Below are positions 23,767 to 39,720 of a stretch of 64,000 nucleotides of DNA, in pieces. The stretch's first letter is position 1, and the number at the start of each line of letters is the position of its first letter. Under the pieces are notes generated by a model. It did no database searches, had not been told where the DNA came from, and saw only the letters and a program-made list of their open reading frames with translations. The DNA is taken from contig NZ_JAAVTX010000004.1 of assembly GCF_012163145.1 (NCBI RefSeq), forward strand, positions 682,001-746,000, read 5' to 3'. Source of the DNA: Falsiroseomonas frigidaquae (GTDB lineage Bacteria; Pseudomonadota; Alphaproteobacteria; Acetobacterales; Acetobacteraceae). Made by a program: the position numbers and the translations under genes.

Positions 23767-25698
23767 ATGGCTTTGGCGAAGCGAGCGCAGGTTGTCACGG
23801 CCCGCCGCGATGAAGCGGCCATGCCGCCCCCGGCGCCCGAGCGCAATGCTGCCCAGGCCGACATCCAGCGCCGCCGGGCACGGACCTTCGCACGCCACCA
23901 GAAGATCGCCGAGCGCGTCGCCGCCGCGACCGCCGAGATGGCCTCCGGCATCAGCGAATCCGCATCCGCCGCAGCCCAGCTCCGCAAGTCGATGGAGCAG
24001 ATCGCAACCGGCGCAGAGGAAGCCGCCGGCGCCTCCCAGGAATCACTGAGCGCCGTCACCAGCATCGCCGCCGGAATCGTCCAGGCACGCGAGAAGGCGG
24101 AGGAGAGTCAACAGAAGACTGGCACCCTGCAGGTCCTGCTGATCGACCTGATCAAGCAGATCGCGACTTCCGTCACGAACATCGGCACCAGTGCCGACCG
24201 CCAATCGGCCTCGGTTCAAATGGTCGTCGAGTTGGAGAAGCAGGCCGCGAATATCGGCGAGATCGTCAAGGCCGTCGCGCGCATCGCCGACCAGACCAAC
24301 CTGCTCGCGCTGAACGCCGCGATCGAGGCGGCGCGGGCCGGACAGCATGGCAAGGGCTTCGCGGTGGTGGCCGATGAGGTCCGTACCCTGGCCGAGACCT
24401 CCGAGAAGAGCGCCCGGGACATCCAGGACCTGGTCGGCCAGATCCGCGGCGAGGTGAAGACCATAGCCGAGGGTATCAACGGCGCGGCCGAAGCGGCCCG
24501 CAGCGAGGTCGAGAAGGGTCGCGTGGTCTCCGTGCAGCTTGAGAAGGTTGCCGCCGAGATGAATACGGTCCTGGACGGCAGCGCGGAGATCCTCGCTTCG
24601 GCGATGGAATCCGACCGTGCCGCGCAGGAAGCGCAGAAGGGCGCCGAACAGATCGCCGCTGCCGCCGTCGAGCAATCCGCGGCCTGCGAGGAAGCGCTGC
24701 GCACCGTGGGCCAGCAGACCCAGGCGCTTGAGCAGAGCCAGACGGCCTCGGAGGAACTCTCAACCATCGCCGAGGATCTGAAGAACAGCACCGACATCTC
24801 GAAGAGCGCCGAGGAACTTGCCTCCGCCGCCGAGGAGCTCTCCTCCGCGGTGCAGGAAATCAGCGGTGCTGCCACGCAGATCATGGCGGCCATCGAGCAG
24901 ATCAACAAGGGGTCGCAGCAGGCTGCCGCCGCCGCACAGCAATCCACTACGGCCATCGTGCAGATCGAGCGTGGCGCAACGCTCTCCCAGGGCCGGGCAA
25001 GCGCCGCACGCGATAGTGGCCGCTCCATCGCCGAAATGGTCAGGACAAGCCGCGCCTCTGTCGACGAGCTGATCCAGGGCGTATCCACCGCCCTCGACGA
25101 GACCAACAAGAACAGCACCCGGATCGGGACGCTGGAGCAGGTCAGCCGCCGGATCGACAAGATCGTCGACTCGATCAACACCGTCTCGATCCAGACCAAC
25201 ATGCTCGCGGTGAACGGCTCGATCGAGGCGGCCCGCGCCGGCGAGTTCGGCAAGGGCTTCATGGTGGTTTCGACCGACATCCGCAACCTGGCGCGTGAAT
25301 CGGCCGAGAACGCCGACCGCATCAAGGATGTGGTGAAGGCGACGCAGGATCAGATCGTGGCCGTCCGCCGCGACCTGGAGCAGATCGCCGCCGCCGCGGA
25401 GGTGGAAGTCCAGAACAACAAGTCCATCACCGCCAATCTGGCGACCGTCGAGCAGGACATGCAGGTCGTCATCAGGGGCAGCGAGGAGATCCTGGCTGGG
25501 GCGGACGTCATCCTGCGCGGCGTATCGGAGGCGCAAAAGGGTACCCAGCAGATCGCCATCGCAGCCGACCAGTCGAGCAAGGGTGCGGGCGAGGCGGCAA
25601 CGGCCGCCAAGCAGCAGTCGCGCGGCGCGGAGGAACTGGCCGCCGCGGTCGAGGAAGTGGCTTCGCTGGCCGACGAGCTGCAGAACTCGCGCGATTGA
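23767..25698 (+). CDS. Soluble methyl-accepting chemotaxis protein with two signalling tips
   Basis: This 643-residue chemoreceptor has no transmembrane segment and no ligand domain. It is almost all coiled coil and contains two hairpin-tip sequences. The first (residues about 166-213) is the canonical [20 protein letters not shown] with [16 protein letters not shown]. The second (about 474-520) is a diverged tip, [20 protein letters not shown] with [18 protein letters not shown]. The helices between the tips include Ala/Glu/Gln pairs typical of methylation sites. ATG 23767 has GGAGAAG upstream and begins [10 protein letters not shown]; longer frames to 23611 lack structure. It opens the chemosensory operon, 13 bases before the triple-CheW gene. 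Confidence 0.92.
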
Positions 25699-25711
25699 TC
25701 GGGGCCAGCGC

Positions 25712-27301: not shown

Positions 27302-27322
27302 ATCTCGGAACGGATCAGGCCG

Positions 27323-28408
27323 ATGCCAAAGCTGCTGATCGCCGACGACAGCGCGCTGATGCGCAAGTTTCTCGGCGAGATATTTCGCATCGAAGGCGAT
27401 TTCGAACTCGCCTTCGCACGCAATGGACTTGAGGCGCTGGCGATGGCGCACAGCTTCGCACCGGACGTGATAACGCTCGACGTGAACATGCCCGAGATGG
27501 ATGGCATCACCTGCCTGAGCCGGATAATGGTCGAGTGCCCGAAGCCGGTTGTGATGGTCTCCTCGCTGACCAGCCAGGGCGCGGAGGTGACGTTGCAGGC
27601 GCTGAGTCTTGGCGCCATAGACTTCATCGCCAAGCCCGACGGAACTGTCTCGCTGCACATCGACAAGATCCGCGGCGCGCTGGTCAGCCGGGTACGCAAC
27701 GCGGCGAGTACCAGGATCCGCGCCAGCCGGAACCTGCTCGAGCGGTTGCGCCACGGTGCCGAAGCCGGCGGCACCTCTACTGCCCGCGCATCGCGCGGGA
27801 CCGTCGCAAGGGTCGGTACCGGGGCCTCGGGACCGGTTCGTGGCGTCGTGTTGATCGGCGTCTCGACCGGCGGACCGTCCGCGATCGAGACGATCCTGCC
27901 ACGCCTGGCCGAGGACTTTCCCTGGCCGATCGTGGTCGCGCAGCACATGCCGGAGAGCTTCACCGGTGTCTTCGCTCGGCGGATCGATAGCCTCTGCCAG
28001 ATCCGGGTGGTCGAGGTGTCGCGGGCAACGCCGCTTGCTGCCGGAATGGCCTACGTCGGCCGGGGCGACGCTGACATCGTGCTGACCACCCGCGCCGGCG
28101 CATTGCACGCGGTGCCGATGCCGGCCTCGGCCCGACACGTGTGGCACCCAAGCGTCGAGCGTCTCGTGACGAGTGCGATGGACCAGGTCCCTGTGCAGAA
28201 TCTGCTTGGCGTGATGCTCACCGGGATGGGCGACGATGGCGCCGAAGCGATGACTGATCTGCGTGCGCGCGGCGGCAGGACCATTGCGGAGGCGGAGGAA
28301 ACCGCGGTGGTCTGGGGCATGCCGGGCGAATTGGTGCGGCGTGGCGGTGCCAATCTGGTGCTGCCGCTGCACCGCATCGCCGACCAGATGGCGCGATGGA
28401 CGAACTGA
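27323..28408 (+). CDS. cheB: Chemotaxis methylesterase/deamidase CheB
   Basis: The 361-residue CheB has a receiver (IADDSALMRKFL, Asp in ITLDVNMPEMDG, VMVSSLTSQGAEVT) and a C-terminal methylesterase. The catalytic triad is visible: serine in IGVSTGGPSAIE, histidine in VAQHMPESFTG and aspartate in TGMGDDGAEAM. CheB removes methyl groups from receptor glutamates when phosphorylated by CheA, so adaptation is part of this pathway. It lies between the CheW scaffold (21 bases) and the HEAT protein (17 bases). Pairing with cheR two genes on supports a complete adaptation loop. Confidence 0.95.
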   Translation: MPKLLIADDSALMRKFLGEIFRIEGDFELAFARNGLEALAMAHSFAPDVITLDVNMPEMDGITCLSRIMVECPKPVVMVSSLTSQGAEVTLQALSLGAIDFIAKPDGTVSLHIDKIRGALVSRVRNAASTRIRASRNLLERLRHGAEAGGTSTARASRGTVARVGTGASGPVRGVVLIGVSTGGPSAIETILPRLAEDFPWPIVVAQHMPESFTGVFARRIDSLCQIRVVEVSRATPLAAGMAYVGRGDADIVLTTRAGALHAVPMPASARHVWHPSVERLVTSAMDQVPVQNLLGVMLTGMGDDGAEAMTDLRARGGRTIAEAEETAVVWGMPGELVRRGGANLVLPLHRIADQMARWTN

Positions 28409-28425
28409 CATGAGGGAGCGCTAAC

Positions 28426-29064
28426 ATGGCATTCGTCAGGGCCGCCGTACCGGGCCTTGCGCCGCCACCGGCAGCGACGGTGGAGGAGCGGGTCGCCCGC
28501 CTTGCAGATGCCGATCCAACCGTGCGCCGGCTTGCGGCACGCAGCCTGGCGGACGCGCCCGTGGCAGCCGCCGCACTGGCTGCGCGCATCGAGGACGAGG
28601 CTGATCTCCGTGTACGGGAGGCGCTGTTCGGCAGCCTCGTGTCGATCGGCGGCACCGATGTCGCGGCGCTGATGGCGCCCTTCCTGCGCAGCCAGGATGC
28701 CGGCCTGCGGAACGGCGCATTGGAATCGTTGAAGCAGATCGGCGCGGAGTCCTGCCGTGCCGCAATCGATGCTTTGGTGGTGGACGCGTCCCCGGATGTG
28801 CGGCTGCTTGCCATTGAGGTCACGCGCGCCTGGCCTGGCCCGCTGGCCGAGCCACTCCTGCGCCAGCTGATCGAGACCGATCCGCATGTGAATGTCTGCG
28901 GCGCCGCAGTGGATGTTGCGACCGAGCTTGGCAGCGCTGCGCTACTGGCGCCGCTCGCCGCCCTTCGGGCCCGCTTCGTCGATGAGCCCTTTCTCGCTTT
29001 CGCGGTCGATGTGGCGCGCGCGCGGATTGCGGGCTGGCAGCAGCCTTCGGGGCCGAAGCGCTGA
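28426..29064 (+). CDS. HEAT-repeat protein within the chemosensory operon
   Basis: The 212-residue protein consists of helical pairs of HEAT/PBS-lyase type: DADPTVRRLAARSLAD, EADLRVREALFGSLVSIG, SQDAGLRNGALESLKQIG, DASPDVRLLAIEVTRAW and DPHVNVCGAAVDVATELG. It has no enzymatic motif. HEAT proteins in che loci usually act as protein-interaction scaffolds (some bind CheA or receptors), but its partner here is unknown. The stop overlaps the cheR start (TGATG). Confidence 0.85.
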   Translation: MAFVRAAVPGLAPPPAATVEERVARLADADPTVRRLAARSLADAPVAAAALAARIEDEADLRVREALFGSLVSIGGTDVAALMAPFLRSQDAGLRNGALESLKQIGAESCRAAIDALVVDASPDVRLLAIEVTRAWPGPLAEPLLRQLIETDPHVNVCGAAVDVATELGSAALLAPLAALRARFVDEPFLAFAVDVARARIAGWQQPSGPKR

Positions 29065-29951
29065 TGCCCCCACTCTCCGCGACCGCAACGGGAAGCCGTG
29101 CCGCGCTGGACGCCGCCGGCATTACTGAATCCGACTACCTGCGCTTCTGCGAGTACTTCTATCGCCGAACCGGAATCGCCTTCGGCGACAACAAGCGCTA
29201 CTTCGTCGACAAGCGCCTGATCGAGCGCATGCACGCCACCGGACATGGCAGCTTCGAACCCTACTTCCTGAGCCTCAGGCGCTTCGATGCCCAGGCCGAG
29301 ATCGAGCGCCTGACCAACCTCCTGACTGTCAACGAGACGTATTTCTACCGCGAGGATCACCAGTTCCACTGCCTCAGCGCCAGCATCCTGCCGGAGGTCA
29401 CCGCGGGGCGCCGGCATGGTGACCGCGTACGCATCTGGTCGATGCCGTGTTCGACCGGCGAGGAGCCCTACTCCATCGCGATCCACCTGCTTGAGAATTG
29501 GGCGCGGGTGGATGACTTCAACATCGAAATCATCGCCTCCGACATCGACACCAAGGTGCTGCGTTCGGCCGCCGAGGGCCTGTATGACGCGCGCTCGCTG
29601 CATCGTCTGCCGCGCGACCTCGTGCGGCGCTACTTCGTGACCGAAGGCGCGGACCGCTTCCGCCTGATCGATGCGATCCGGCAGTCGGTCAGCTTCACCA
29701 CGCTCAACGCGAGCGATCCGGCAGCGATGCGCGCCTATGCCGGCGTCGATGTGATCTTTTGCCGCAACATGCTGATCTACTTTGACGACAAGTCGCGCAA
29801 GCAGGTCGTTGAGTCATTCTACGACAGTCTGACCGAAGGCGGTTTCATCTGCCTCGGCCACTCCGAGTCGATGAGCAGAATCTCGCCCATCTTCAAGGCC
29901 CGCGCCTTCGCCCAGGCCATCGTCTACCAGAAACCCGGAGGTCCGCGGTGA
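29064..29951 (+). CDS. cheR: Chemotaxis methyltransferase CheR
   Basis: The 295-residue enzyme methylates receptor glutamates using S-adenosylmethionine. It has the N-terminal helical CheR domain (RFCEYFYRRTGIAFGDNKRYFVDKRL, LLTVNETYFYRE) and a Rossmann domain with the SAM loop SMPCSTGEEPYSIA. The acidic ASDIDTKVL and the family end motif VIFCRNMLIYFD follow. It has no TPR or pentapeptide tether extension. The GTG of the next receiver gene overlaps its stop. With cheB it provides adaptation for the receptors at both ends of the operon. Confidence 0.95.
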   Translation: MPPLSATATGSRAALDAAGITESDYLRFCEYFYRRTGIAFGDNKRYFVDKRLIERMHATGHGSFEPYFLSLRRFDAQAEIERLTNLLTVNETYFYREDHQFHCLSASILPEVTAGRRHGDRVRIWSMPCSTGEEPYSIAIHLLENWARVDDFNIEIIASDIDTKVLRSAAEGLYDARSLHRLPRDLVRRYFVTEGADRFRLIDAIRQSVSFTTLNASDPAAMRAYAGVDVIFCRNMLIYFDDKSRKQVVESFYDSLTEGGFICLGHSESMSRISPIFKARAFAQAIVYQKPGGPR

Positions 29952-30394
29952 CCATGCCAGACAGCCCGGCGCAGGACAGAACGGCCGGCGCCGACGCGCC
30001 CGCGAAGATCCTCGTGGTCGACGACGCAACCGTGGTGCGGCTCTACTACGGCCAGACCCTGGCTGCCGAGGGTTACGCGATGGCCGAGGCCATCAATGGC
30101 CAGGAAGGGATCGAGCGCGCGCTTTGCGAGCGCTTCGACCTCTGCGTGGTCGACGTGAACATGCCGGTGATGGATGGCTATGCCTTCGTGCGCGCGCTCC
30201 GCGCCGAACCCGCGACGGCCGCAACACCGGTTCTGATGACCAGCACCCAGTCGGGCGACGTGGATCGCCGGCTGGCGGTCGAAGCAGGGGCGAATTTCTA
30301 CCTGGTCAAGCCGGTGCAGCCGGCGGCCCTCGCCGCAACGGTCGCCGCCATGATCGGCCGCCGACCCGCGCCCCAGGAAGGATCGAGCGCATGA
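29948..30394 (+). CDS. Single-domain response regulator (CheY-like)
   Basis: The 148-residue receiver has the acidic pocket VVDDATVVR, phospho-acceptor Asp in CVVDVNMPVMDG, TSTQSG and the lysine in LVKPVQP. A proline-rich N-terminal tail of about 20 residues precedes the fold. The start is GTG 29948 (GTGA overlap with cheR) or ATG 29954. Its stop overlaps the cheA start (ATGA). It is one of three separate receivers in the cluster and could be a phosphate sink or an output for CheA. Confidence 0.9.
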   Translation: MTMPDSPAQDRTAGADAPAKILVVDDATVVRLYYGQTLAAEGYAMAEAINGQEGIERALCERFDLCVVDVNMPVMDGYAFVRALRAEPATAATPVLMTSTQSGDVDRRLAVEAGANFYLVKPVQPAALAATVAAMIGRRPAPQEGSSA

Positions 30395-32709
30395 ACGAGC
30401 TGCTGGCCAGCTTCGTCACCGAAGCGCGCGACCTGCTGGCGGAGGCCGCCGAGGATCTGCTGGCGCTGGAGCGCACACCTGACGACGAGGCCGCGATCAA
30501 CCGCCTGTTCCGCTCTGTGCATACGCTGAAAGGCTCGTCGGGACTGTTCGACGTGGCGCCGCTGACACGCATTCTGCACGCGGCCGAGGACATGTTCCAG
30601 GCGGTGCGCGAGCAGGGCGTGGCGCTGAGCGCCGAGATGGTGGACGTGGCGCTGCGCACGCTGGACCAGACCGGGCTCTGGATCGACGCGCTGGAACGCA
30701 ACCAGACCTTGCCGGACACCGCGGCCGCGGCGTCGCAGACCCTGGCGGCCACGCTCCGGGCGGCATTCGGCTCCGTCGCCACTGGCGGTGCAGCAGCCAC
30801 GGCGGCGAGCCCGGACACCGCCCCGGAGGCAGGCGCAGCCGCCGAACTCCTGGCCTGCTTCGACGCGACGCTGCGCCGCGTGCTGTCGCGCGAGTCCGGC
30901 TCCTTCCGACTGATCACCTATGAGCCTGACGAGGCCTGCTTCTTCAAGGGAGAGGACCCCTTGCATCTGGCGCTGCAGATCCCGGGCATGGCAGCGCTGG
31001 CCAGCACGGCGCGCAGCCCCTGGCAGACGCCGGACGCGCTCGACCCGTTCATGTGCAATCTGCGCTTCCACGCCCTGTCCCGCGCCGGCCACGACACGTT
31101 GGAGGCGCTGTTCCGCTATGTGCCTGAACAGGTCACGATCCTCGACATCCCGGCGGCCGCGTTGCTCCATGCGATTCCGGCAGGCGCTGCGCCGGCCACG
31201 CCCGCGGCCAACCCGCTGACGGGGGAGTTGCTCTCGGCCCAGCTCGCGCTGCTCGATGCCCCTGCGCCGGAGGCGGAACGCGCCGGCCGCTGGGCGGCGG
31301 CGGCGGACGTCGCGCGCCATGTGCTCCAGGCCGACGGCCATAACGCCGCGGCAGCGTCGGTCGCGGCGGCGCATGCCGAAGCCGAGGCAGCATGCCTGCC
31401 CGGCCGGCTGCGATCCGCGATCGCCGACGTGCTCGCCAATCTCGCAGCCGTTGTTCCTGCCTTGGCCGCCGCGCCGGCCATGCCCGGCCGGGATGCCCAG
31501 GCCCGGCCCGCCGCCGAGCCACCGGAGCGTACGGCACCGCGCACGTTGCGGATCGACCAGGAGAAGATCGACCAGATGATGAATCTGGTAGGCGAGCTGA
31601 TCGTCGCGAAGAACAGTCTTCCCTTCCTCGCCCGCCGCGCCGAGCAGCAGTTCGGCCAGCGTGAACTGGGGCGCGAGATCCAGGACCAGTACAGCGTGAT
31701 CGACCGCATCGCGCAGGAGCTGCAAGGCTCCGTCATGGCGGTGCGGATGATGCCCATGGGTCAGGTCTTCCAGCGATTTCCGCGCCTGGTCCGCGACCTC
31801 GCACGGAAGCTCGGCAAGCAGGTCGAGCTGGTGATCGAGGGCGAGCAGACGGAAGCCGACAAGAACGTCATCGAGACCCTGTTCGACCCGCTGCTGCACA
31901 TGGTGCGCAACTGCCTTGACCATGCCGTGGAGCCACCCGCGGAGCGCATCGCGCTGGGCAAGCCGGAGACCGCGATCGTCAAGCTCGCCGCCCGGCAGGA
32001 CAGCGATCAGGTCGTGATCGAGATCATCGACGACGGGCGCGGACTGGACCCCGAAAAGCTGAAGCGCAAGGCCTATGAACGCGGCCTGATCGATGAGGAC
32101 CGAATGGCCGCGATGAGCGACCATGAGGCCCGCATGTTGATCTTTGCCGCCGGATTTTCAACCGCCGCGACGATCTCCGACGTATCCGGCCGCGGTGTCG
32201 GCATGGATGTGGTGCGCAATGCGGTGGAGAAGGCCGGCGGGCGCGTAGCGCTGTCGAGCGAGCTTGGGCGTGGGACGACGGTACGGCTCAACCTGCCGCT
32301 CAGCATGGCGGTGACGCGGGTGATGACCGTGACGCTGCATGAGCGGCTGTTCGGCATCCCGATGGACCTGATCCGGGAGACGGTACGCGTGCCGGCGGCA
32401 GACATCCTGCGTATCAAATCAAGCGAAGCCTTCCTGCTGCGTGACCGGGTGGTACCGCTGCTCCGCCTGGCCTCGCTGCTCGAGATGACGGAGCCAGAAG
32501 CTGCCGGGGATGATGTCGCGGTGCTGGTGGTACGGGTTGGCGGGCAGACCATCGGGCTCGGCATCACTGCATTCGGCGAGGGCATGGAAGTCATTCTTAA
32601 ACCGCTGGCTGGCATGCTGGCCGCTCTCGGCGGCTACGCCGGCACCGCGCTCCTCGGCGACGGGCGGGTTCTCCTGGTGCTCGATCTGAAGGAGTTGATC
32701 GCGACATGA
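30391..32709 (+). CDS. cheA: Chemotaxis histidine kinase CheA
   Basis: The 772-residue kinase shows P1 with phospho-acceptor His44 (SVHTLKGSSG) and a P2-position domain at about 155-265 (EPDEACFFKGEDPLHLALQIPG) of the variant seen in some non-enteric CheAs. A long Ala/Pro-rich linker follows, then the P3 dimerisation helix (EKIDQMMNLVGELIVAKNSL, about 386). P4 has HMVRNCLDHAVE, DDGRGLDPEKL and GRGVGMDVVRNAV, and P5 is a CheW-like domain. It lacks a fused receiver. ATG 30391 overlaps the receiver stop; upstream frame to 30124 is spurious. All ATP-binding boxes are intact, so it should be an active kinase controlled by the two receptors via the CheW scaffold. Confidence 0.95.
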   Translation: MNELLASFVTEARDLLAEAAEDLLALERTPDDEAAINRLFRSVHTLKGSSGLFDVAPLTRILHAAEDMFQAVREQGVALSAEMVDVALRTLDQTGLWIDALERNQTLPDTAAAASQTLAATLRAAFGSVATGGAAATAASPDTAPEAGAAAELLACFDATLRRVLSRESGSFRLITYEPDEACFFKGEDPLHLALQIPGMAALASTARSPWQTPDALDPFMCNLRFHALSRAGHDTLEALFRYVPEQVTILDIPAAALLHAIPAGAAPATPAANPLTGELLSAQLALLDAPAPEAERAGRWAAAADVARHVLQADGHNAAAASVAAAHAEAEAACLPGRLRSAIADVLANLAAVVPALAAAPAMPGRDAQARPAAEPPERTAPRTLRIDQEKIDQMMNLVGELIVAKNSLPFLARRAEQQFGQRELGREIQDQYSVIDRIAQELQGSVMAVRMMPMGQVFQRFPRLVRDLARKLGKQVELVIEGEQTEADKNVIETLFDPLLHMVRNCLDHAVEPPAERIALGKPETAIVKLAARQDSDQVVIEIIDDGRGLDPEKLKRKAYERGLIDEDRMAAMSDHEARMLIFAAGFSTAATISDVSGRGVGMDVVRNAVEKAGGRVALSSELGRGTTVRLNLPLSMAVTRVMTVTLHERLFGIPMDLIRETVRVPAADILRIKSSEAFLLRDRVVPLLRLASLLEMTEPEAAGDDVAVLVVRVGGQTIGLGITAFGEGMEVILKPLAGMLAALGGYAGTALLGDGRVLLVLDLKELIAT

Positions 32710-32737
32710 CCACCCTGCACCGGCCGGCCAAGGCGCC

Positions 32738-32995
32738 ATGAGCATCCGACGCGACGGCGACGGCATCCTGCTCGAGGGCGTCTGCCCGATCGAGGATGCC
32801 GAGGCCATGCTGCGCCACGCCCAGGAGGGTGCCGGCTTTGTCGACTGGAGCGGCTGCACGCATCTGCATGCGGCCTGCCTGCAGGTGCTGCTGTCCAGCG
32901 GCCTCGCCTTGCGCGGCACGCCGGCCTCGCCGCTTCTCGCCCAATGGCTGGTGCCCATGCTGCCGGTCGCAAGCACCCAACTGAGTGAGGCCTGA
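32738..32995 (+). CDS. Small STAS-like protein
   Basis: The 85-residue protein begins with an alternating beta pattern (IRRDGDGILLEGVCPIEDAEAM) and has a FVDWSGCTHLHAACLQVLLSSG block. That resembles the phospho-site strand and helix of STAS proteins (vDlSgvtxlxsaxLqvLl), with Ser/Cys/Thr where anti-sigma antagonists carry the phosphorylated Ser. Such mini-STAS proteins occur between cheA and cheY in several alphaproteobacterial and spirochaetal che clusters. The start lies 28 bases after cheA; cheY begins 3 bases later. A link to the stressosome at the operon end is attractive but unproven. Confidence 0.7.
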   Translation: MSIRRDGDGILLEGVCPIEDAEAMLRHAQEGAGFVDWSGCTHLHAACLQVLLSSGLALRGTPASPLLAQWLVPMLPVASTQLSEA

Positions 32996-32998
32996 GCC

Positions 32999-33370
32999 AT
33001 GGCTGCCGTCCTGGTACTCGACGATTCCGCGACCATGGTCATGAGCCTCTCGCGCATCCTGAAGAACGCCGGCCACACCGTCGATACCGGCGCCGATGGG
33101 CGCGAAGGCGTGGCCAAGCTGACTGGCGGGTTGAAGCCGGCAATCATCCTGACCGACCTGAACATGCCGAACATGGACGGCATCGCCTTCATCAAGGAGG
33201 CACGGCGCAACGCCGCCACGCGTTTCACGCCGATCGTGGTGCTGACCACGGAATCAAGCGCCGGCAAGCGTGAGGAAGCGCGCGCTGCCGGCGCCTCCGC
33301 CTGGTTGATCAAGCCGACGGAGCCGAATGCGCTGCTCTCCACCTTGAAGCAGTTACTGCCGGCGGCATGA
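32999..33370 (+). CDS. Single-domain response regulator CheY
   Basis: The 123-residue protein is a minimal receiver of CheY length. It has LVLDDSATMVMSLSRIL, phospho-acceptor Asp in IILTDLNMPNMDGI, the switch threonine in VVLTTESS and lysine in LIKPTEP. No output domain is present. ATG 32999 is 3 bases after the STAS-like stop; its own stop overlaps the next ATG. The MPNMDG and KPTEP variants are typical of CheYs encoded beside cheA in alphaproteobacteria. Confidence 0.92.
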   Translation: MAAVLVLDDSATMVMSLSRILKNAGHTVDTGADGREGVAKLTGGLKPAIILTDLNMPNMDGIAFIKEARRNAATRFTPIVVLTTESSAGKREEARAAGASAWLIKPTEPNALLSTLKQLLPAA

Positions 33371-33813
33371 GCATGGCCTCGGCTCATTCGCCCAGCTCGG
33401 CATCGGCCGCGGCCGACGCCGAGGAACGCCTGGCTTGCGCGGTCCTCGCCGCGCAGGTGCTTGCATTGCGCGAGGAGTTTCGTGTTGTCGCACTGTCGGA
33501 CCAGATCTGGACCGCAAGCGAGACGCTGACGCGCCTGGCCGATCCGGCGGCGGCAGTCGATGCCGCGACGCTGGAGCAGGTCGCGCGCATGCTGGAGACC
33601 CATGCCTTCCTGCAGGCCCAGAGCTTCGACCGCGCCAGCCAGATGGCCGATACCGTGGCCACCGGGCTGCGCGCGCTTGCCGCCTCCGAACGGCCGCCGG
33701 GCGCCCGCCTCGCCGCGCTTGACCTGCTAGGGCTGTATGTCTGCGAGGAGCAGCGCCGCGTTCATGATGCGGTGGTCAACCCGATGCCGGACAGCCCAAG
33801 GGAAACATCGTGA
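33367..33813 (+). CDS. Helical protein of unknown function in the che operon
   Basis: This 148-residue protein is almost all helix by composition: Ala/Leu/Glu-rich segments AEERLACAVLAAQVLALREEF, DAATLEQVARMLETHAFLQAQSFDRASQMAD and ALDLLGLYVCEEQRRVHDAVV. The position in the operon (after cheY, before a receptor, both by 4-bp overlaps) and the four-helix look suggest a CheZ-like or receptor-associated adaptor. I see no CheZ signature (no QDLTGQ), so no function is assigned. Confidence 0.65.
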   Translation: MSMASAHSPSSASAAADAEERLACAVLAAQVLALREEFRVVALSDQIWTASETLTRLADPAAAVDAATLEQVARMLETHAFLQAQSFDRASQMADTVATGLRALAASERPPGARLAALDLLGLYVCEEQRRVHDAVVNPMPDSPRETS

Positions 33814-34955
33814 ACGGACGCGAAGCCTGTTTCCCGCTCGGCCATGGCGCAGCCGGAATCGCGATCCTGGTTTCGGCTGGGTCCTCGCTGCCGGTTACGC
33901 TGCTGGGCGCCGCCGTCACCACGCTCTCGATCACCGCGCTGCTGCTGCGCCGCCCCTGGAGGCGCCAGGCCCCGGTCGGCGTGCTGGAATCATCCAACGA
34001 TGCCGACGCCGTGGCACCGCTGGGGCATGACGGCATGGCGCTCGCCGTCGCCTCGGGCGGCACGTCGCGCGACATGGAAACCGCGCTGCGCCTGCTCGGC
34101 TCCACCATCGTCGAACAGGTGGATACCTCGGTACGCACGGTGCTGGAGGAAAACCACCAGATGCGCGAGATGGCGAGTGAGATGGCCTCCGCGGCGGAGC
34201 AGGCCAAGACACAGTTCTACCACTCCATGCAGCGCGCCACGCAATCCGAAGCGAGCATCGAGGAACTGCAATCCTTCAGTGGCGAGCTTGCCGGGTCGAT
34301 CGGGGTGATCGGCGCGGCGGTCGGCAGTTCCATCGCCATCGTCAAGGACGCAACCGCGCGTGCGGCCGCGACGCGCGCCTGCGTGGAGACCATGGCGCAG
34401 CTATCGGACGCGGTTGCCGAGGCAATCCGGATGATCGACCAGATCGCGCGGCAGACCCGGATGCTGGCGCTCAACGCCACGATCGAAGCAGCACGCGCCG
34501 GTGCCGCCGGCAGCGGCTTCGCAGTGGTGGCTGAAGAGGTCAAGCAACTCGCGAGACAGACCGCGGAAGCAACGCAGACCATCGGTGCCAAGCTGGCCGA
34601 ACAGAATGCCATGGTGGCGAGCGTCGTTCTTTCACTGCAGGAGCTGACGGGTACGATCGAGAGCGTCGACCAGGCCAGCGGATCCATCGGCCGCGCCATT
34701 GCGGACCAGGAAGGCATCGCGCTGCGCGTCACCTCCAGCCTCACGCAGATGCGCGACGCCGTCTTCACCCTCTCGCGTGAGATACGCGAAGCGGCACAGA
34801 TCGCGGCCAATAGCGGAATGCTGTCGGACCTGGTCCTGGAGACTGCGAATTCCGTCGATGGGCTGATGAACGGTCTCAAGGTGAAGCTAAGCGATATCGG
34901 TGAGGGCATGATCCCGAACGGTTCGGACGCCGCCCGCCGGCGTGACGCGGCCTGA
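33810..34955 (+). CDS. Membrane-anchored methyl-accepting chemotaxis protein
   Basis: The 381-residue receptor has an N-terminal hydrophobic hairpin (residues about 12-47: AAGIAILVSAGSSLP, TLLGAAVTTLSITALLL) with no periplasmic ligand domain between the two helices. A cytoplasmic coiled coil follows. The signalling tip is QIARQTRMLALNATIEAARAG with GFAVVAEEVKQLARQTAEAT (about 210-250). With so little outside the membrane it should sense membrane state, or a signal in the cytoplasm or relayed by a partner. The GTG start overlaps the preceding stop (GTGA). It sits 6 bases before the LOV kinase gene. Confidence 0.92.
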   Translation: MNGREACFPLGHGAAGIAILVSAGSSLPVTLLGAAVTTLSITALLLRRPWRRQAPVGVLESSNDADAVAPLGHDGMALAVASGGTSRDMETALRLLGSTIVEQVDTSVRTVLEENHQMREMASEMASAAEQAKTQFYHSMQRATQSEASIEELQSFSGELAGSIGVIGAAVGSSIAIVKDATARAAATRACVETMAQLSDAVAEAIRMIDQIARQTRMLALNATIEAARAGAAGSGFAVVAEEVKQLARQTAEATQTIGAKLAEQNAMVASVVLSLQELTGTIESVDQASGSIGRAIADQEGIALRVTSSLTQMRDAVFTLSREIREAAQIAANSGMLSDLVLETANSVDGLMNGLKVKLSDIGEGMIPNGSDAARRRDAA

Positions 34956-34961
34956 TCGGCC

Positions 34962-36524
34962 ATGCCCGGCCGGCTTTGCCCTGGGTCATCCACATCGCCA
35001 GGCGGCGGGGCGCGCATGGCGCGCGCGCTGGGGCTGGCGCGGATCGCCTGCTTCGAGATGGAAGCGGGAAAGGACGGTGCCTGGCGCTGGTTCGGTGCGA
35101 CCTTCGGCATCACCGGCGTCGACGGGCCGGAGGGGCGCGCGCGGCTGCTGGAGGCCGTCTTCGATGCCGACCGCCCGAGCCTATGGGTCTTGTTGAGCGA
35201 GGAAGGCGCTGCAGCCGCAGACAACGGCCTGCTGAGCGTGGAGATCCGCATCCTGACCGCGCATGGCGGCAGCCTGGACCTGCAATGCGAGGTCACGGCC
35301 GAGCCTGCGTCGCCGTTCGGGCCGGCCACCCTGATCGGCACCATCCGCGACGTCACCCACGAACGGCGCTTCGAGGCCGACCTCAGCGAGCTGGTGCGGC
35401 ACAACCACCTGCTTCTGGCGACCATCGATGCCTGTCCGCTCAGCATCACGGTTTCCGACATGACGCGGCCGGACGCGCCGCTGATCTATGCCAACCGGCG
35501 GTTTCTCGAGATCACCGGCTACCAGGCCGATGAAGTGATCGGGCACAACTGCCGCTTCCTCCAGGGTCCGGGTACGGACCGCACGGCGGTGGAGCGCATC
35601 CGCGGCGCGATCGCGCGCGGAGAGCAGACCGAGCTTCGGCTGCTGAACTACACGCGGGCCGGCGAGCCCTTCCTCAACAACCTGATGCTGTCGCCGTTGC
35701 GCGACGAGGCCGGCGCGCTCAGCGCCTATCTGGGCCTGCAGGAGGATGTGACACTTGAGGCCGCGCGGAGCGAGGCCGAGGCGCAGCGCCAGAAGATGGA
35801 GGCGCTCGGGCGGATGATGGGCGGGGTGGCGCATGAGGTGAACAACATGCTCCAGCCGATCGCCCTGCTCGCGCAGCATCTGCTCGACGCCGGGCTCGCG
35901 CAGGGCGAGGCGCGCGAGCATGTAGAGGTGGTACTGGATTGCAGCCTCAAGGCGCGCCAGATCATTGGCGACCTGCTCACCTTCTCCCGCCCTGCCACCC
36001 GCCTTGCGCAGCGCCACGCGGCCGCGGCACTGATGCAGGACGCCCTGCGCCTGGTGCGCCCGGCGCTGCCCGCCGGCATCGCCCTGGTGGTGCAGATCCG
36101 CGAGACGCTGCCGGATGTGGCCATCGAGCGCACGGTCTTCGCACAGATCGTCCTGAACCTTGCCACCAACGCGGCCGCAGCCATGCAGGGCAGCGGCCGC
36201 CTGTCAGTTACCGTCGAGCCAATGCCATCGGCGCTGCCGATCGAGGCGCCTTCCCTGGCTGGCGGGCTCCGGATCCGCGTCATCGACACCGGCTGCGGCA
36301 TGGACCGCGTGACCCTCGACCGTGCCTTCGAACCCTTCTTCACCACCAAGCCGGTCGGCCAGGGCACCGGGCTTGGCCTGCCGATGGTCTATGGCCTGGT
36401 CCGCGAAGCCGGCGGCAGCATCACGTTGCAAAGCCAGCCTGGAATCGGGACCGCCGTGACGATCCTGCTGCCCCCTGCCCCGCCCGAGGAGATGCCCGCC
36501 CATGGCCACCATCCTGGTCATTGA
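34962..36524 (+). CDS. LOV-domain (blue-light type) PAS histidine kinase
   Basis: This 520-residue soluble kinase has a PAS-like N-terminal domain (about 20-130) ending GTIRDVTHERRFEADL. A second PAS domain of LOV type follows (about 140-260), and then HisKA (VAHEVNNMLQPIALL) and HATPase (LNLATNAAAA, DTGCGMD, GTGLGLPMVYGLV). The LOV signature GHNCRFLQ contains the photoactive cysteine (Cys197), and the FMN-binding NRRFLEITGY, NNLMLSPL and YLGLQEDVT segments are present. Blue light should form a cysteinyl-flavin adduct and change kinase activity. The start is ATG 34962 or ATG 35016. Its end overlaps the next receiver by 23 bases, implying a kinase-regulator pair. Confidence 0.9.
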   Translation: MPGRLCPGSSTSPGGGARMARALGLARIACFEMEAGKDGAWRWFGATFGITGVDGPEGRARLLEAVFDADRPSLWVLLSEEGAAAADNGLLSVEIRILTAHGGSLDLQCEVTAEPASPFGPATLIGTIRDVTHERRFEADLSELVRHNHLLLATIDACPLSITVSDMTRPDAPLIYANRRFLEITGYQADEVIGHNCRFLQGPGTDRTAVERIRGAIARGEQTELRLLNYTRAGEPFLNNLMLSPLRDEAGALSAYLGLQEDVTLEAARSEAEAQRQKMEALGRMMGGVAHEVNNMLQPIALLAQHLLDAGLAQGEAREHVEVVLDCSLKARQIIGDLLTFSRPATRLAQRHAAAALMQDALRLVRPALPAGIALVVQIRETLPDVAIERTVFAQIVLNLATNAAAAMQGSGRLSVTVEPMPSALPIEAPSLAGGLRIRVIDTGCGMDRVTLDRAFEPFFTTKPVGQGTGLGLPMVYGLVREAGGSITLQSQPGIGTAVTILLPPAPPEEMPAHGHHPGH

Positions 36525-36903
36525 AGACGTGTCCGCCGTGCTGCTTTCGCTGCGCATCGTGCTGCAGGGCGCCGGCCACAAGGTTACCGGAGCCGGGGAC
36601 GGAGCCGCTGGGCTTGAGCTGATTGCGGGCGGCGGCTTCGACCTCGTCATCACCGATATCTGGATGCCGGGCCTGAGCGGTGCCGAGGTCATCCGTGCCG
36701 GACGCGCGCAATCGCCGCGCACGCGCTTCCTGGCGATCAGCGGCGGCGATCCGAACAGCGAGTCTCGCCCCGAATGCCTGGCCTCGGACGCTTTCGGCGC
36801 AGACCGCCTGCTGTCGAAGCCCTTCGAGAAGGAGGCCCTGCTGCGCGAGGTCGCCCTGCTGCTCGATCCCGCCCCTGCCAACTCACAAGGAAGGACTCCA
36901 TGA
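36502..36903 (+). CDS. Single-domain response regulator partner of the LOV kinase
   Basis: The 133-residue receiver has VIEDVSAVLLSLRIVL (the second acidic residue of the pocket is D), phospho-acceptor Asp in LVITDIWMPGLSG, the switch serine in LAISGGDPN and lysine in LLSKPFEKE. There is no output domain. It overlaps the LOV kinase gene by 23 bases and the RsbR gene by 4. This makes it the natural phospho-acceptor of the kinase and a physical bridge between the light kinase and the stressosome genes. Confidence 0.9.
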   Translation: MATILVIEDVSAVLLSLRIVLQGAGHKVTGAGDGAAGLELIAGGGFDLVITDIWMPGLSGAEVIRAGRAQSPRTRFLAISGGDPNSESRPECLASDAFGADRLLSKPFEKEALLREVALLLDPAPANSQGRTP

Positions 36904-37754
36904 GTGACACCCCGGATGCGGCTGGTCCGTCGCATCGTATCGCGCTGTGCCTGCGGGAACACCGAGCCGCCATTCTCCGACAGTGGTTTGCCCATCTGGT
37001 GGAGGACGGCCAGATCGCGCGGATCGATGCGGAGACGCTGCGCGACCTCTCGACCCGCCTGCTGGATGAGTTGATCGGCGCGCTCGACCAGCCGCATCGC
37101 CGCGATCTCGCAAAGGGCATGGCCGATCTTCTCTCAGGCATCTCCATCGATTTCGTCGAGCGCGGCTTCACTCCCTCACGGACCGCCACCTTCATCTTCA
37201 GCCTCAAACACCCGATCTTTCCGCTATTCGCGCAGGACCCCGCAGCGCAGTTCGAGGTGCTCGGCTGGATCGACCGGATGGGCCTGCACAGCATCGATGC
37301 CTTCATCGCGCGTCGCGAGGCGGTGATCAGGCGGCAGACGCAGGAACTGCTCGAGGTCTCGGTACCGGTGGTGCCGCTTGCGGAGGGCATTCTCTCGCTG
37401 CCGATCATCGGCACGCTCGATTCCGGACGCGCGCAGGCAATCACCGAGAAGCTTCTGTCGGAGATCGCACGTACCGCCTCGCGCTACGCAGTCCTCGACA
37501 TCAGCGGGGTGCCGACGGTCGATACCCAGACGGCGCAGTATCTCGCCAGGACCGCTGCGGCGGCGCGGCTGATGGGCTCCGAATGCGTCATCACCGGCAT
37601 CCGCCCGGCGATCGCGCAGGTCATGGTGGCGCTCGGCATCGATATGGCATCGATCGAGACTCGCTTCTCGCTGGCGGATGGGCTGCGCCATTGCCTCGGG
37701 CAGCAGGGCCTGGAGATCGCGCCGCGGGCCCCTGCCCTGCGCGGCATCGGCTGA
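36900..37754 (+). CDS. rsbR: RsbR-type stressosome protein (N-terminal helical sensor plus STAS)
   Basis: The 284-residue protein has an N-terminal all-helical domain (LREHRAAILRQWFAHL, LLDELIGAL) of the RsbRD type, a linker helix (FIARREAVIRRQTQELLEVSVPV), and a C-terminal STAS domain. The STAS phospho-site region reads AVLDISGVPTVDTQTAQYL, with threonines where B. subtilis RsbR is phosphorylated by RsbT. In stressosomes RsbR and RsbS form a large shell whose phosphorylation releases RsbT. Only one RsbR is encoded. ATG 36900 has AAGGA just upstream and overlaps the receiver stop; it is coupled to rsbS by TGATG. Confidence 0.9.
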   Translation: MSDTPDAAGPSHRIALCLREHRAAILRQWFAHLVEDGQIARIDAETLRDLSTRLLDELIGALDQPHRRDLAKGMADLLSGISIDFVERGFTPSRTATFIFSLKHPIFPLFAQDPAAQFEVLGWIDRMGLHSIDAFIARREAVIRRQTQELLEVSVPVVPLAEGILSLPIIGTLDSGRAQAITEKLLSEIARTASRYAVLDISGVPTVDTQTAQYLARTAAAARLMGSECVITGIRPAIAQVMVALGIDMASIETRFSLADGLRHCLGQQGLEIAPRAPALRGIG

Positions 37755-38119
37755 TGGCCGGCGCCACCATCATCGCCATCGGCGGTACACTCATCGTGAC
37801 GCTGCACGACGACGCCGCCTCGACCGAGGCCGACGACCTCATGGCGCTGGTCTGCGGACGCATCGTGGCACATGCGGCGAACAACGTCGTGATCGACATC
37901 GCGCCACTCTCGATGGTGGACAGCTACCTCGCGCGGACGCTGGGCGGCCTGGCGGCCGCGGGCCGGCTCCTCGGGGCGGAGACGATCCTTGCCGGGATGC
38001 GGCCGGAGGTCGCGATCGCGATGGTGGAGCTCGGCACGGACCTGCCCGGTCTCCGCACCGCGATGAATGTCGAGCTGGCCATGGCCGCGCTGGGGCCGCA
38101 TCATCGGCCAAGCCGTTGA
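37754..38119 (+). CDS. rsbS: RsbS stressosome core protein (STAS)
   Basis: The 121-residue single STAS domain matches RsbS in length. The phospho-acceptor serine lies in IDIAPLSMVDSYLARTLG, equivalent to the B. subtilis S-x-x-D-S-Y motif, and AGMRPEVAIAMVELG follows as in RsbS. RsbS forms the stressosome scaffold with RsbR and holds RsbT. Starts at ATG 37754, overlapping the rsbR stop by one base; its TGA is shared with a TTG start for rsbT. Confidence 0.92.
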   Translation: MAGATIIAIGGTLIVTLHDDAASTEADDLMALVCGRIVAHAANNVVIDIAPLSMVDSYLARTLGGLAAAGRLLGAETILAGMRPEVAIAMVELGTDLPGLRTAMNVELAMAALGPHHRPSR

Positions 38120-38541
38120 TCGCGGCCGGGGCGTCTTCCGATGGCGCGAGCCTTGTCCTTCCCATCGAAACCGCGGTGAGCCTGGTCGCGGTGCAGCGCG
38201 CGGTCACCGGGGCGGCGGGACTGATCGGCCTCGGCCTGGTCGAGAAGACCAAGCTCCTGACCGCCAGCAGCGAACTCGCGCGCAACATCCTGGTCCATGC
38301 CGGCAAGGGCGAGGCCCGGATCGACACCATCGAGGGTCTGCCCCGCAGCGGCATCCGCATCAGCTTCACCGATAGCGGCCCGGGCATCACCGACATCGAC
38401 CGAGCGATGCAGGATGGCTTCAGCAGTTCGCGTGGCATGGGTCTCGGCCTGCCGGGAAGCCGCCGGCTGGTGCATGAATTCGCCATCGATTCCACGCCGG
38501 GACGGGGCACACGCGTCGTGATCGCCATATGGAAGCGGTAG
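38116..38541 (+). CDS. rsbT: RsbT switch kinase
   Basis: The 141-residue protein is a GHKL-type Ser/Thr switch kinase. It has the N-box ASSELARNILVHAG, G1 FTDSGPGI and the RsbT-specific FSSSRGMGLGLPGSRRLVHEF. It phosphorylates RsbR and RsbS and, once freed, normally activates an output phosphatase. No ATG lies at the right place; TTG 38116 (TTGA overlap with the rsbS stop) gives MIAAGASSDGASLVLPIET, in register with family N-termini. Rare TTG initiation by coupling would tie its level to RsbS, which makes sense for a stoichiometric complex. Its end overlaps the phosphatase gene by 13 bases. Confidence 0.88.
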   Translation: MIAAGASSDGASLVLPIETAVSLVAVQRAVTGAAGLIGLGLVEKTKLLTASSELARNILVHAGKGEARIDTIEGLPRSGIRISFTDSGPGITDIDRAMQDGFSSSRGMGLGLPGSRRLVHEFAIDSTPGRGTRVVIAIWKR

Positions 38542-39551
38542 CACGACCCGACCACCAGCACCTGGCGGTGACCGTGGCCCTGGCGCCAGATGTTCTGGAG
38601 GCACGCAACACCGGCCGCGCGATGTGCGAAGGCACGACCCTGTCGCCGACGCAGCGGGAGCGCGTCGCGCTTATCGCTACGGAACTGGCCACCAATCTGG
38701 TGCGTCACGCTTCCGCCGGGGGCACCATGCTGTTCCGCAGGATCGATGGGCGCGCCGGGGTGGAGTGCCTCTGCCTCGACCGCGGGCCTGGCATGGCGGA
38801 TATCGCAGTGGCGCTGCGGGATGGCGCCAGTGGAGGGCCGGGGCGCGGCGAAGGGCTCGGCGCGGTGCGGCGGCTCAGCGACGCCTTCGACATCCACTCA
38901 AGACCCGGCCTCGGCACCGCCATCCTCGCGCGCGTCTCGGCGGAAGGCGATGAGGAGGCGGGACGGGCCGGGCCCGGTGTCGGGGCCGTGATGCTCGCAA
39001 TGGCCGGAATGGAACAGTGCGGCGATGGCTGGATGGTGCGGCCGGACGGGCTCGTGGTCGTTCTCGACGGGCTGGGCCACGGGCCGGAGGCCTCGCTGGC
39101 GGCGCGGCGGGCGGAGGCCAGCGTGATGCACGGAGATCCGGACCCGCTCCACCTGCTGCACGCCATGCACGAGGCGCTGCGCGGCACCCGCGGCGCGGTG
39201 GCATTTGTCGCCCGGCTCGAAGCCGATGCCGTGGAATTCGCAGGCGTCGGGAACATCGCGGGCGCCATCATCGGCGGGGACGGCATCCGGCGGCTGCATA
39301 GCAGTTGGGGGGTGGTCGGCGGTCGTCTTGGCACGCCAGGTCGGCGCCGCATGCCCTGGAAGGCCGGCGAGGCGCTGTTGCTGCACAGCGATGGCGTGAG
39401 CCGGGCTGCGGAAGCCTATGCGGCGGCGCATCTGCGCTATGCCGATCCGACGCTGGCCTGCGCCATCGCGCTGCGCGACGGCACCACGAAGCTGGATGAC
39501 CAGACCGTGTTCATCGCCCGGCATGGAGGGATAGAGAGCAGGCCTCATTGA
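38529..39551 (+). CDS. RsbX-like protein: GHKL ATPase fused to a PP2C/SpoIIE phosphatase
   Basis: The 340-residue protein joins two parts. Residues about 1-135 are an RsbT/RsbW-like ATPase (LIATELATNLVRHAS, CLDRGPGM, GEGLGAVRRLSDAFDI). Residues about 145-335 form a PP2C-like domain (LVVVLDGLGHGPEAS, VGNIAGAII, LHSDGVSR, LDDQTVFIAR). B. subtilis RsbX is the phosphatase alone and resets RsbS-P/RsbR-P; the fused kinase-plus-phosphatase form is known from non-Firmicute stressosome clusters. It can plausibly add and remove phosphate in the same complex. It is the last gene of the operon; a hairpin follows at 39669. Confidence 0.88.
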   Translation: MEAVARPDHQHLAVTVALAPDVLEARNTGRAMCEGTTLSPTQRERVALIATELATNLVRHASAGGTMLFRRIDGRAGVECLCLDRGPGMADIAVALRDGASGGPGRGEGLGAVRRLSDAFDIHSRPGLGTAILARVSAEGDEEAGRAGPGVGAVMLAMAGMEQCGDGWMVRPDGLVVVLDGLGHGPEASLAARRAEASVMHGDPDPLHLLHAMHEALRGTRGAVAFVARLEADAVEFAGVGNIAGAIIGGDGIRRLHSSWGVVGGRLGTPGRRRMPWKAGEALLLHSDGVSRAAEAYAAAHLRYADPTLACAIALRDGTTKLDDQTVFIARHGGIESRPH

Positions 39552-39668
39552 GATTGACGTGTTCCCCGCGGTTCCGGCCAGGGATGCGATAGGCCCGCGA
39601 CGCCAGGAGCCACCCGGTTCGCGGCGAACCCACGGTCGGGCGATTTGCGGCACTATCCGGACGCAAGA

Positions 39669-39702
39669 AAGCCGCCTTCGGAGTGGTTCTCCGAGGCGGC
39701 TT
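39669..39702 (+). terminator. Long inverted repeat downstream of the chemosensory/stressosome operon
   Basis: A 14-15-bp GC-rich arm (39669-39683) pairs with 39689-39702 across a 5-base loop, with one bulged base. It lies 117 bases after the last gene of the 17-gene operon and is well placed to end transcription. No T-tract follows, so it may rely on Rho or act as a 3'-end stabiliser. Confidence 0.55.
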
Positions 39703-39720
39703 GGAATGCGGTGATTTGGA

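What the first reader, a model, noticed from the sequence alone, without database searches (positions are those of the whole stretch)
23767..39551. Chemosensory array, LOV kinase and stressosome encoded as one 17-gene operon
Seen directly: 17 co-directional genes, nearly all overlapping or within 30 bases, run from a soluble MCP through cheW3, cheB, cheR, cheA and cheY into a LOV histidine kinase, a receiver, rsbR, rsbS, rsbT and an RsbX-like phosphatase. Known: che systems and stressosomes each form large supramolecular arrays, and LOV domains occur in some stressosome RsbR proteins. Inference: this operon could encode a combined device in which light or redox state and receptor signalling feed both CheA and RsbT. 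No flagellar, pilus, sigma factor or c-di-GMP gene is present, so the output is open. This is my main candidate for an undescribed system.
Basis: partly seen in the sequence, partly recalled or inferred. Interest (0 to 1): 0.85.

Follow-up and report, generated by a model that had tools for sequence, protein, structure and literature searches.

The report
Chemosensory and stressosome genes in one operon
In a number of related bacteria the genes for a chemoreceptor-type signalling array sit next to the genes for a stressosome and its histidine kinase, and this pairing seems to have come about at least twice, which suggests that the two kinds of signalling assembly work together.

Summary
In detail: 17 co-directional open genes (23767-39551) encode a complete chemosensory (Che) set followed by LOV histidine kinase, receiver, RsbR, RsbS, RsbT and an ATPase-phosphatase fusion, with no + strand terminator found inside. 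The halves are separable: same-genus and same-family genomes have the Che part alone. Yet the union recurs: of 16 che-class genomes with RsbS (49 searched), 12 have RsbS 6.7-10.0 kb from the triple-CheW gene, same strand, and 2 more have it beside cheY and mcp2 on another contig. In 32 other sampled genomes, RsbS lies near a CheA in only one, itself such a locus. Type A (window, Azospirillum) has a LOV kinase. Type B (Methylobacterium, Rhodoplanes, Magnetospirillum) has a kinase with an RsbU_N-like domain, the RsbT docking domain of RsbU. Their RST genes form separate lineages (one clade rejected, p-AU 0.005), which suggests independent joining. Best explanation: the stressosome gates a kinase-receiver pair that works with the Che pathway. 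Genetic coupling is shown; wiring is inferred. Stressosome-kinase operons and a che-partner-switch locus (Shewanella) are known; ten searches of an open-licence library found no che array with a full stressosome.

The parts
23767..25698 (+). mcp1: soluble chemoreceptor-like protein with two receptor tips and no recognised sensor domain
   Evidence: MCPsignal 5.6e-57, two stretches; tips at residues 176 and 476, no hydrophobic segment
25712..27301 (+). cheW3: three CheW domains
   Evidence: CheW 1e-94, 3 stretches
27323..28408 (+). cheB
   Evidence: CheB_methylest 6.7e-51, Response_reg
28426..29064 (+). HEAT-repeat protein
   Evidence: HEAT_2 2.9e-14
29064..29951 (+). cheR
   Evidence: CheR 1e-56
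29948..30394 (+). rec1: single receiver
   Evidence: Response_reg 6.1e-24
30391..32709 (+). cheA
   Evidence: Hpt, H-kinase_dim, HATPase_c, CheW
32738..32995 (+). small STAS protein that follows cheA with or without rsb genes; usual DS site reads HA here
32999..33370 (+). cheY
   Evidence: Response_reg 5.7e-21
33367..33813 (+). unk10: possible CheZ-like phosphatase (D-x-x-x-Q); resembles by eye the C-terminus of mcp2 of other che loci
   Evidence: no Pfam match, nothing over cut-off; alignments, fifth copy
33810..34955 (+). mcp2: short, probably membrane-anchored chemoreceptor-like protein
   Evidence: MCPsignal 5.8e-25; hydrophobic residues 14-47
35016..36524 (+). LOV histidine kinase (alternative start 34962)
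   Evidence: PAS_9, HisKA, HATPase_c; NCRFLQ motif; phototropin LOV structures 1e-31
36502..36903 (+). rec2: single receiver between kinase and rsbR
   Evidence: Response_reg 2.5e-17; homologue in type A and type B loci
36900..37754 (+). rsbR: RsbRD_N + STAS
   Evidence: RsbRD_N 1.8e-17, STAS 1.5e-14; stressosome RsbR chains 2.5e-26
37754..38119 (+). rsbS
   Evidence: S57 in DS motif invariant in 7 of 7; RsbS chains 3.5e-39 with profile A4
38116..38541 (+). rsbT: switch kinase, TTG start
   Evidence: HATPase_c 3.9e-11; start; alignment; no PDB match by phmmer
38529..39551 (+). rsbX: RsbW/T-like ATPase fused to SpoIIE-type phosphatase
   Evidence: HATPase_c_2 5.2e-12, SpoIIE 1.1e-5
39669..39702 (.). 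strong hairpin after the last gene, possible operon end
   Evidence: RNA fold -32 kcal/mol for 39660-39720, z -4.6

Best explanation
The locus encodes one composite signalling unit. A chemosensory set (double-tipped soluble receptor, second receptor with a membrane segment, triple CheW, CheA, CheR/CheB, CheY) is joined to an add-on of stressosome proteins plus a histidine kinase-receiver pair. Proposed working: RsbR/RsbS hold RsbT; under stress RsbT is released and acts on the histidine kinase, which in this window is also a blue-light (LOV) sensor; the kinase phosphorylates the single receiver rec2; rec2 and the CheA-fed receivers then act in the same pathway. The stressosome would thus be a gated input to a Che array whose receptors have no recognised ligand-binding domain, not a route to a sigma factor. 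Shown here: the genes, their recurrent linkage, two RST lineages, and the RsbU_N-like domain on the type B kinase. Inferred: assembly, RsbT-kinase contact, direction of flow and the rec2-Che contact.
For: Linkage: of 16 che-class genomes with RsbS, 12 have it 6.7-10.0 kb from cheW3 on the same strand; in 2 more (G748, G792) mcp2, cheY and unk10 lie directly before the LOV kinase on a contig other than cheW3's. Control: in 32 genomes from class and phylum samples 1 RsbS lies within 20 kb of a CheA match (E<=1e-60), and that is G644, a type B locus. In one class sample of 385 genomes RsbS occurs in 14, the che class in 5, both in 4, two of them unlinked (Fisher p 1.2e-4 without the window genome). 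Two orders of the same genes: window che first, Azospirillum RST first. Two RST lineages, A and B as one clade rejected, p-AU 0.005. Type B kinase: RsbU_N match at E<=1 in 10 of 10 members, best 4.6e-7; the profile's only PDB hits at E<=10 are four RsbU sequences, best 2.6e-5; in 7 of 7 type B or reduced genomes the best RsbU_N match lies in this kinase, 3 over the cut-off. Kinase and rec2 are in both forms.
Confidence: 0.42

Rival explanations
1. Parallel pathways, shared promoter: che array and stressosome-kinase module are co-expressed because both serve the same condition, but have separate targets; RsbT drives HK-rec2 towards an unlinked output and CheA drives CheY elsewhere.
For: Both modules occur without the other: RsbS not within 20 kb of a CheA match on its contig in 31 of 32 genomes (some contigs are short), che without RsbS in 33 of 49 genomes.
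Against: Recurrent union with one che class, from two RST lineages, is hard to explain by co-expression alone; in G792 the RST unit keeps cheY and mcp2 beside it.
Confidence: 0.33
2. The chemosensory array is the input and the stressosome the output stage: CheA phosphorylates rec2, which resets RsbR/RsbS and so frees RsbT to act on an unlinked target, as Shewanella Che1 is thought to act on the CrsR/CrsA partner switch.
For: Shewanella precedent (PMC9855816, passages); rec2 lies next to rsbR in both forms; no RsbU_N match in type A genomes.
Against: In type B the RsbU_N kinase is inside the locus, which makes the kinase the likely RsbT target; Rhodoblastus keeps rec2-ATPase-kinase without R and S.
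Confidence: 0.15
3. Fortuitous neighbourhood of two mobile signalling cassettes.
For: Patchy distribution: RsbR in 6 of 299 order genomes at E<=1e-12, the CheW3 in 5 of 16 genus genomes at E<=1e-60, two of the five distant; IS3-type transposase downstream.
Against: 12 of 19 RsbS loci in che-class genomes are linked against about 0.4% expected per locus (lineages are not independent, five groups by my own grouping); Che and RST trees agree in outline inside A and B (by eye).
Confidence: 0.1

Closest known systems
Gram-negative stressosome RSTX modules with downstream two-component or c-di-GMP proteins (Vibrio vulnificus and others, PMC9237108; V. brasiliensis, PMC4976288)
   Same: RsbR, RsbS, RsbT, phosphatase and two-component proteins in one cluster; RsbU_N on some downstream proteins already reported in alpha, beta and gamma groups; a CheY-like gene beside V. 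brasiliensis RST was noted, with aerotaxis suggested (passages only)
   Different: No complete chemosensory set in the passages seen; RsbR there has a globin, here RsbRD_N; the window kinase has LOV instead of RsbU_N
RsbU_N histidine kinase / RsbT coiled-coil linker model (eLife 2025, PMC12143880)
   Same: Proposes RsbT control of kinases with RsbU_N; type B kinases fit (passages only)
   Different: The word chemotaxis does not occur in the text held; CheA appears in the passages seen only as a structure
Shewanella oneidensis Che1 with CrsR/CrsA partner switch (PMC9855816)
   Same: Chemosensory and partner-switch genes in one locus, thought to control RpoS (passages only)
   Different: [quoted passage not shown] no RsbR/RsbS/RsbT named in the passages seen
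Rhodospirillum centenum Che3 (CheA3-CheS3-CheY3, PMC3868531)
   Same: A che cluster whose CheA phosphorylates the receiver of a second histidine kinase (passages only)
   Different: CheA3 is a hybrid kinase; the terms STAS and sigma factor do not occur in that text; controls cyst formation
LOV histidine kinases and LOV-STAS proteins (YtvA)
   Same: LOV sequence with NCRFLQ
   Different: LOV is on the kinase, not on the STAS protein

Membership tests
Stressosome (RsbRST) | RsbR with sensory N-domain plus STAS and phospho-Thr site | tested here: met
   RsbRD_N and STAS; RsbR chains of solved stressosomes 2.5e-26; first site VDT kept in the window, second site V in the window and the three other type A rows, T in type B rows and in L017; which Thr sites are phosphorylated in B. 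subtilis is recalled
Stressosome (RsbRST) | RsbS single STAS with phospho-Ser | tested here: met
   DS motif invariant in 7 of 7; RsbS chains 3.5e-39
Stressosome (RsbRST) | RsbT switch kinase | tested here: met
   HATPase_c, motifs in alignment, position after rsbS; no PDB match by phmmer
Stressosome (RsbRST) | assembly into a large RsbR/RsbS complex | not testable with these tools
   needs purification and electron microscopy
Chemosensory (Che) pathway | receptor tip, CheW, CheA, adaptation enzymes CheR and CheB, CheY | tested here: met
Chemosensory (Che) pathway | array formation | not testable with these tools
   needs microscopy
Chemosensory (Che) pathway | assignment to a named Che class (F9, ACF and so on) | not tested
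   class names for Azospirillum seen only in passages of PMC3245306
RsbU_N-gated histidine kinase | RsbU_N at the kinase N-terminus in the window | tested here: not met
   no match at E<=1 in the window genome
RsbU_N-gated histidine kinase | RsbU_N at the kinase N-terminus in type B relatives | tested here: met
   10 of 10 members at E<=1, best 4.6e-7; PDB hits RsbU only; 3 of 7 genomes over the curated cut-off; one of the 11 kinases of A5 (L124) was left out of A8
RsbU_N-gated histidine kinase | fold like RsbU N-domain | tested here: inconclusive
   [not shown]
Shewanella Che1-Crs type | receiver fused to an anti-sigma domain plus its antagonist | tested here: not met
   receivers in the operon are single-domain or in CheB; the Crs layout is from PMC9855816 passages
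LOV photoreceptor | LOV domain with the reactive-Cys motif | tested here: met
   NCRFLQ in 5 of 5 type A kinases aligned; phototropin LOV 1e-31; photochemistry not testable here
CheZ-like phosphatase (unk10) | D-x-x-x-Q helix acting on CheY-P | tested here: inconclusive
   motif by eye in 5 of 5 copies; no Pfam CheZ match in the three copies scanned

The most novel reading that the evidence does not exclude
A two-assembly signalling machine: a stressosome serves as the sensor of a chemosensory array whose own receptors lack recognised ligand-binding domains, with RsbT acting as a soluble messenger that switches a histidine kinase (through RsbU_N in type B, through another contact in the LOV type A), so that serine/threonine partner switching is converted into His-Asp phosphorelay inside the Che pathway. 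The union evolved at least twice in Alphaproteobacteria.
Probability: 0.25. Interest if true: 0.88.

Novelty: new variant of a known kind. Interest (0 to 1): 0.7.

Why it matters
Chemosensory arrays and stressosomes are two well-studied large bacterial sensing assemblies, treated as separate. A recurrent locus that holds both makes a direct exchange between partner switching and His-Asp phosphotransfer testable, gives stressosomes of Gram-negative bacteria a candidate partner pathway, and offers workable hosts (Methylobacterium, Azospirillum, Magnetospirillum, Rhodoplanes).

Tried and rejected

Window-unique fusion: held, dropped.

Stand-alone type A module: I first took G792 (L126) for one (note, label), because my listing was cut at 12 kb. 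One search shows mcp2, cheY and an unk10-like gene before its kinase. G751 (L125) has no che gene on its 9.5 kb contig.

Single origin of the che-linked RST: tested and rejected (L126 and L124 counted in A and B), but I had seen the quick tree before naming the groups, and the root is unknown; modules without che could derive from linked ones.

In one search loci cut short by contig ends count as 'none seen'. The 32 genomes leave out G540 and G635 (short contigs, no che hit) and the window genome; only the CheA places lying on an RsbS contig were typed in.

c-di-GMP as output: some che loci without RST have GGDEF/EAL genes nearby (L093, L047, L099); such genes are common, so this is only a lead.

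CheS of Sinorhizobium as relative of the small STAS protein is recalled, not tested. Plasmids: 105 records match RsbR, all under 60% identity; none was followed up.

Not in print, as far as searched: in an open-licence library; nine papers were seen in passages only, the rest as listings. Subscription papers, among them early RST surveys that I only recall, were not seen.
Full report
What is there. The window holds 17 co-directional open genes from 23767 to 39551. Pfam identifies the chemosensory half (double-tipped MCP, triple CheW, CheB, HEAT protein, CheR, receiver, CheA, small STAS protein, CheY, an unmatched 148-residue protein, second MCP) and the second half (LOV histidine kinase, receiver rec2, RsbR, RsbS, RsbT and an ATPase-phosphatase fusion). 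15 of 16 junctions overlap or are at most 28 bp. The consensus scan finds no + strand terminator in the operon, the mcp2-kinase junction is not structured (z +1.5), and a strong hairpin follows the last gene (z -4.6). RsbR and RsbS match chains of solved stressosomes; RsbT finds no PDB match by phmmer. The LOV part matches phototropin LOV structures.

The host. 

The halves are separable. Che orthologues without RST occur in the same genus (G359, G360) and family (G143), ending at mcp2 with unrelated genes behind. RsbR is found in 6 of 299 genomes of the order, and among the 8 same-genus genomes listed only in the window's own. The 16 RST loci without che that I fetched and re-read have no best match to CheA, CheW, CheR, HEAT or mcp1 in their fetched flanks, which are 3 to 20 kb in all.

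The union recurs. G644, another family of the class, carries che and RST on one strand. A scan of genome contigs with the triple-CheW alignment gave 69 loci; 15 of 69 show rsbR within the 10 kb flank and two (Rhodoblastus) a reduced rec2-ATPase-kinase form. In 49 of the genomes behind these loci, 16 have RsbS, and in 12 of the 16 it lies 6.7-10.0 kb from cheW3 on the same strand; counted by RsbS loci, 12 of 19. In two more (G748, G792) mcp2, cheY and unk10 stand directly before the LOV kinase on a contig other than cheW3's. G785 has its RST at a contig end, and G751 on a short contig without che genes. As a control, RsbS loci of 32 genomes from class and phylum samples were compared with CheA matches at E<=1e-60: 1 of 32 lies within 20 kb, and that is G644; many lie on contigs without a CheA and some of these are short, so linkage there could be missed. 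In one class sample of 385 genomes RsbS occurs in 14, the che class in 5, both in 4; two of these four (G608, G708) are not seen linked (Fisher p 5e-6 with and 1.2e-4 without the window genome). The binomial figures ignore shared descent.

Two forms. Type A (window, Azospirillum, G792) has the order LOV kinase, rec2, R, S, T, fused X. In the window this follows mcp1...cheA-STAS-cheY-unk10-mcp2. In Azospirillum the order is mcp2-cheY-unk10-kinase-rec2-R-S-T-X, then, in L043 and L044, a receiver, a 208-216-residue protein (CheX-like in L043) and a kinase, then mcp1...cheA-STAS. Type B (Methylobacterium, Rhodoplanes, Rhodovulum sp. PH10, Magnetospirillum, an Azospirillaceae MAG, G644) has che...mcp2-rec2-R-S-T-second ATPase-phosphatase-kinase, in several loci with a ParA-like gene between STAS and cheY; some genes are not called or look broken in L117 and L118. 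A concatenated RsbR-RsbS-RsbT tree puts A (100/100) and B (99/96) apart, A beside eleven alphaproteobacterial modules without che (99/99); one clade of A and B is rejected with p-AU 0.005 (caveats in Tried and rejected). On the Che tree the RST label needs 7 changes. Inside A and inside B the Che and RST trees agree in outline by eye.

Details. unk10 carries D-x-x-x-Q in 5 of 5 type A copies seen. mcp2 of two type B loci and of two che loci without RST carries QFQDxxRQ and an IELF end, 4 of 4 aligned; that the two correspond, and that they act like CheZ, is my reading by eye. RsbS keeps its DS serine in 7 of 7. RsbR of type A lacks the second threonine (V in 4 of 4 aligned). The rec2 rows aligned keep the acidic pair, the Asp and the Lys (9 of 9, by eye). 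The small STAS protein is predicted with a STAS fold nearest SpoIIAA and RsbV, but goes with cheA whether or not RST is there.

Reading. The genetic coupling of one che class with stressosome plus kinase-receiver is well supported. The most likely working is a stressosome-gated kinase-receiver pair acting on, or with, the Che pathway; direction and contact are inferred. Precedents exist for each half-step: RST with two-component genes, che with a partner switch in Shewanella, CheA speaking to a second kinase in Rhodospirillum centenum. A che array with a complete stressosome was not found in ten searches of an open-licence library.

Noticed in passing
window 40593-41309, - strand: IS3-type transposase (integrase core, HTH_21) about 1 kb downstream of rsbX; a phage tail tube fragment lies at 42175-42657.
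   Followed up: no
L009 = G000:C17:156500-176400: The same genome has a second che locus with multi-CheW, CheB, CheR, CheA, small STAS, receiver and a large kinase, also seen in G003, G011, G053, G088 (twice), G364 and, partly, G138; it recalls R. centenum Che3 in layout, not tested.
   Followed up: partly
L093 / L128: The che locus closest to the window's (Acetobacteraceae bog MAG) has a phytochrome-GGDEF-EAL protein about 2.2 kb behind cheY; L047 has PAS-GGDEF-EAL right behind the small STAS gene and L099 a GGDEF gene.
   Followed up: partly
L119, L127 (Rhodoblastus): Reduced form: rec2, one RsbT-like ATPase and an RsbU_N-like kinase behind che, without RsbR, RsbS and phosphatase.
   Followed up: partly
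L124 and L090 (Chromatiaceae MAG G785): An RST-ATPase-kinase-receiver-ParA contig starts inside a gene, and the che contig of the same genome ends inside the gene behind cheY; possibly one locus outside Alphaproteobacteria. Not joined.
   Followed up: no
L126 (G792, Paracraurococcus): mcp2-cheY-unk10-LOV kinase-rec2-R-S-T-X stands apart from the only CheW3 locus found in that genome, whose Che genes group with another clade.
   Followed up: partly
mcp1, window 23767-25698: A receptor-like protein with two signalling tips and no sensor domain; by a strict pattern 29 of 67 relatives show two tips, 35 one, 3 none.
   Followed up: partly
L048, L052, L053, L067 and others: ParA-like ATPase between small STAS and cheY in many of these che loci, with and without RST, possibly placing a cytoplasmic array.
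   Followed up: no
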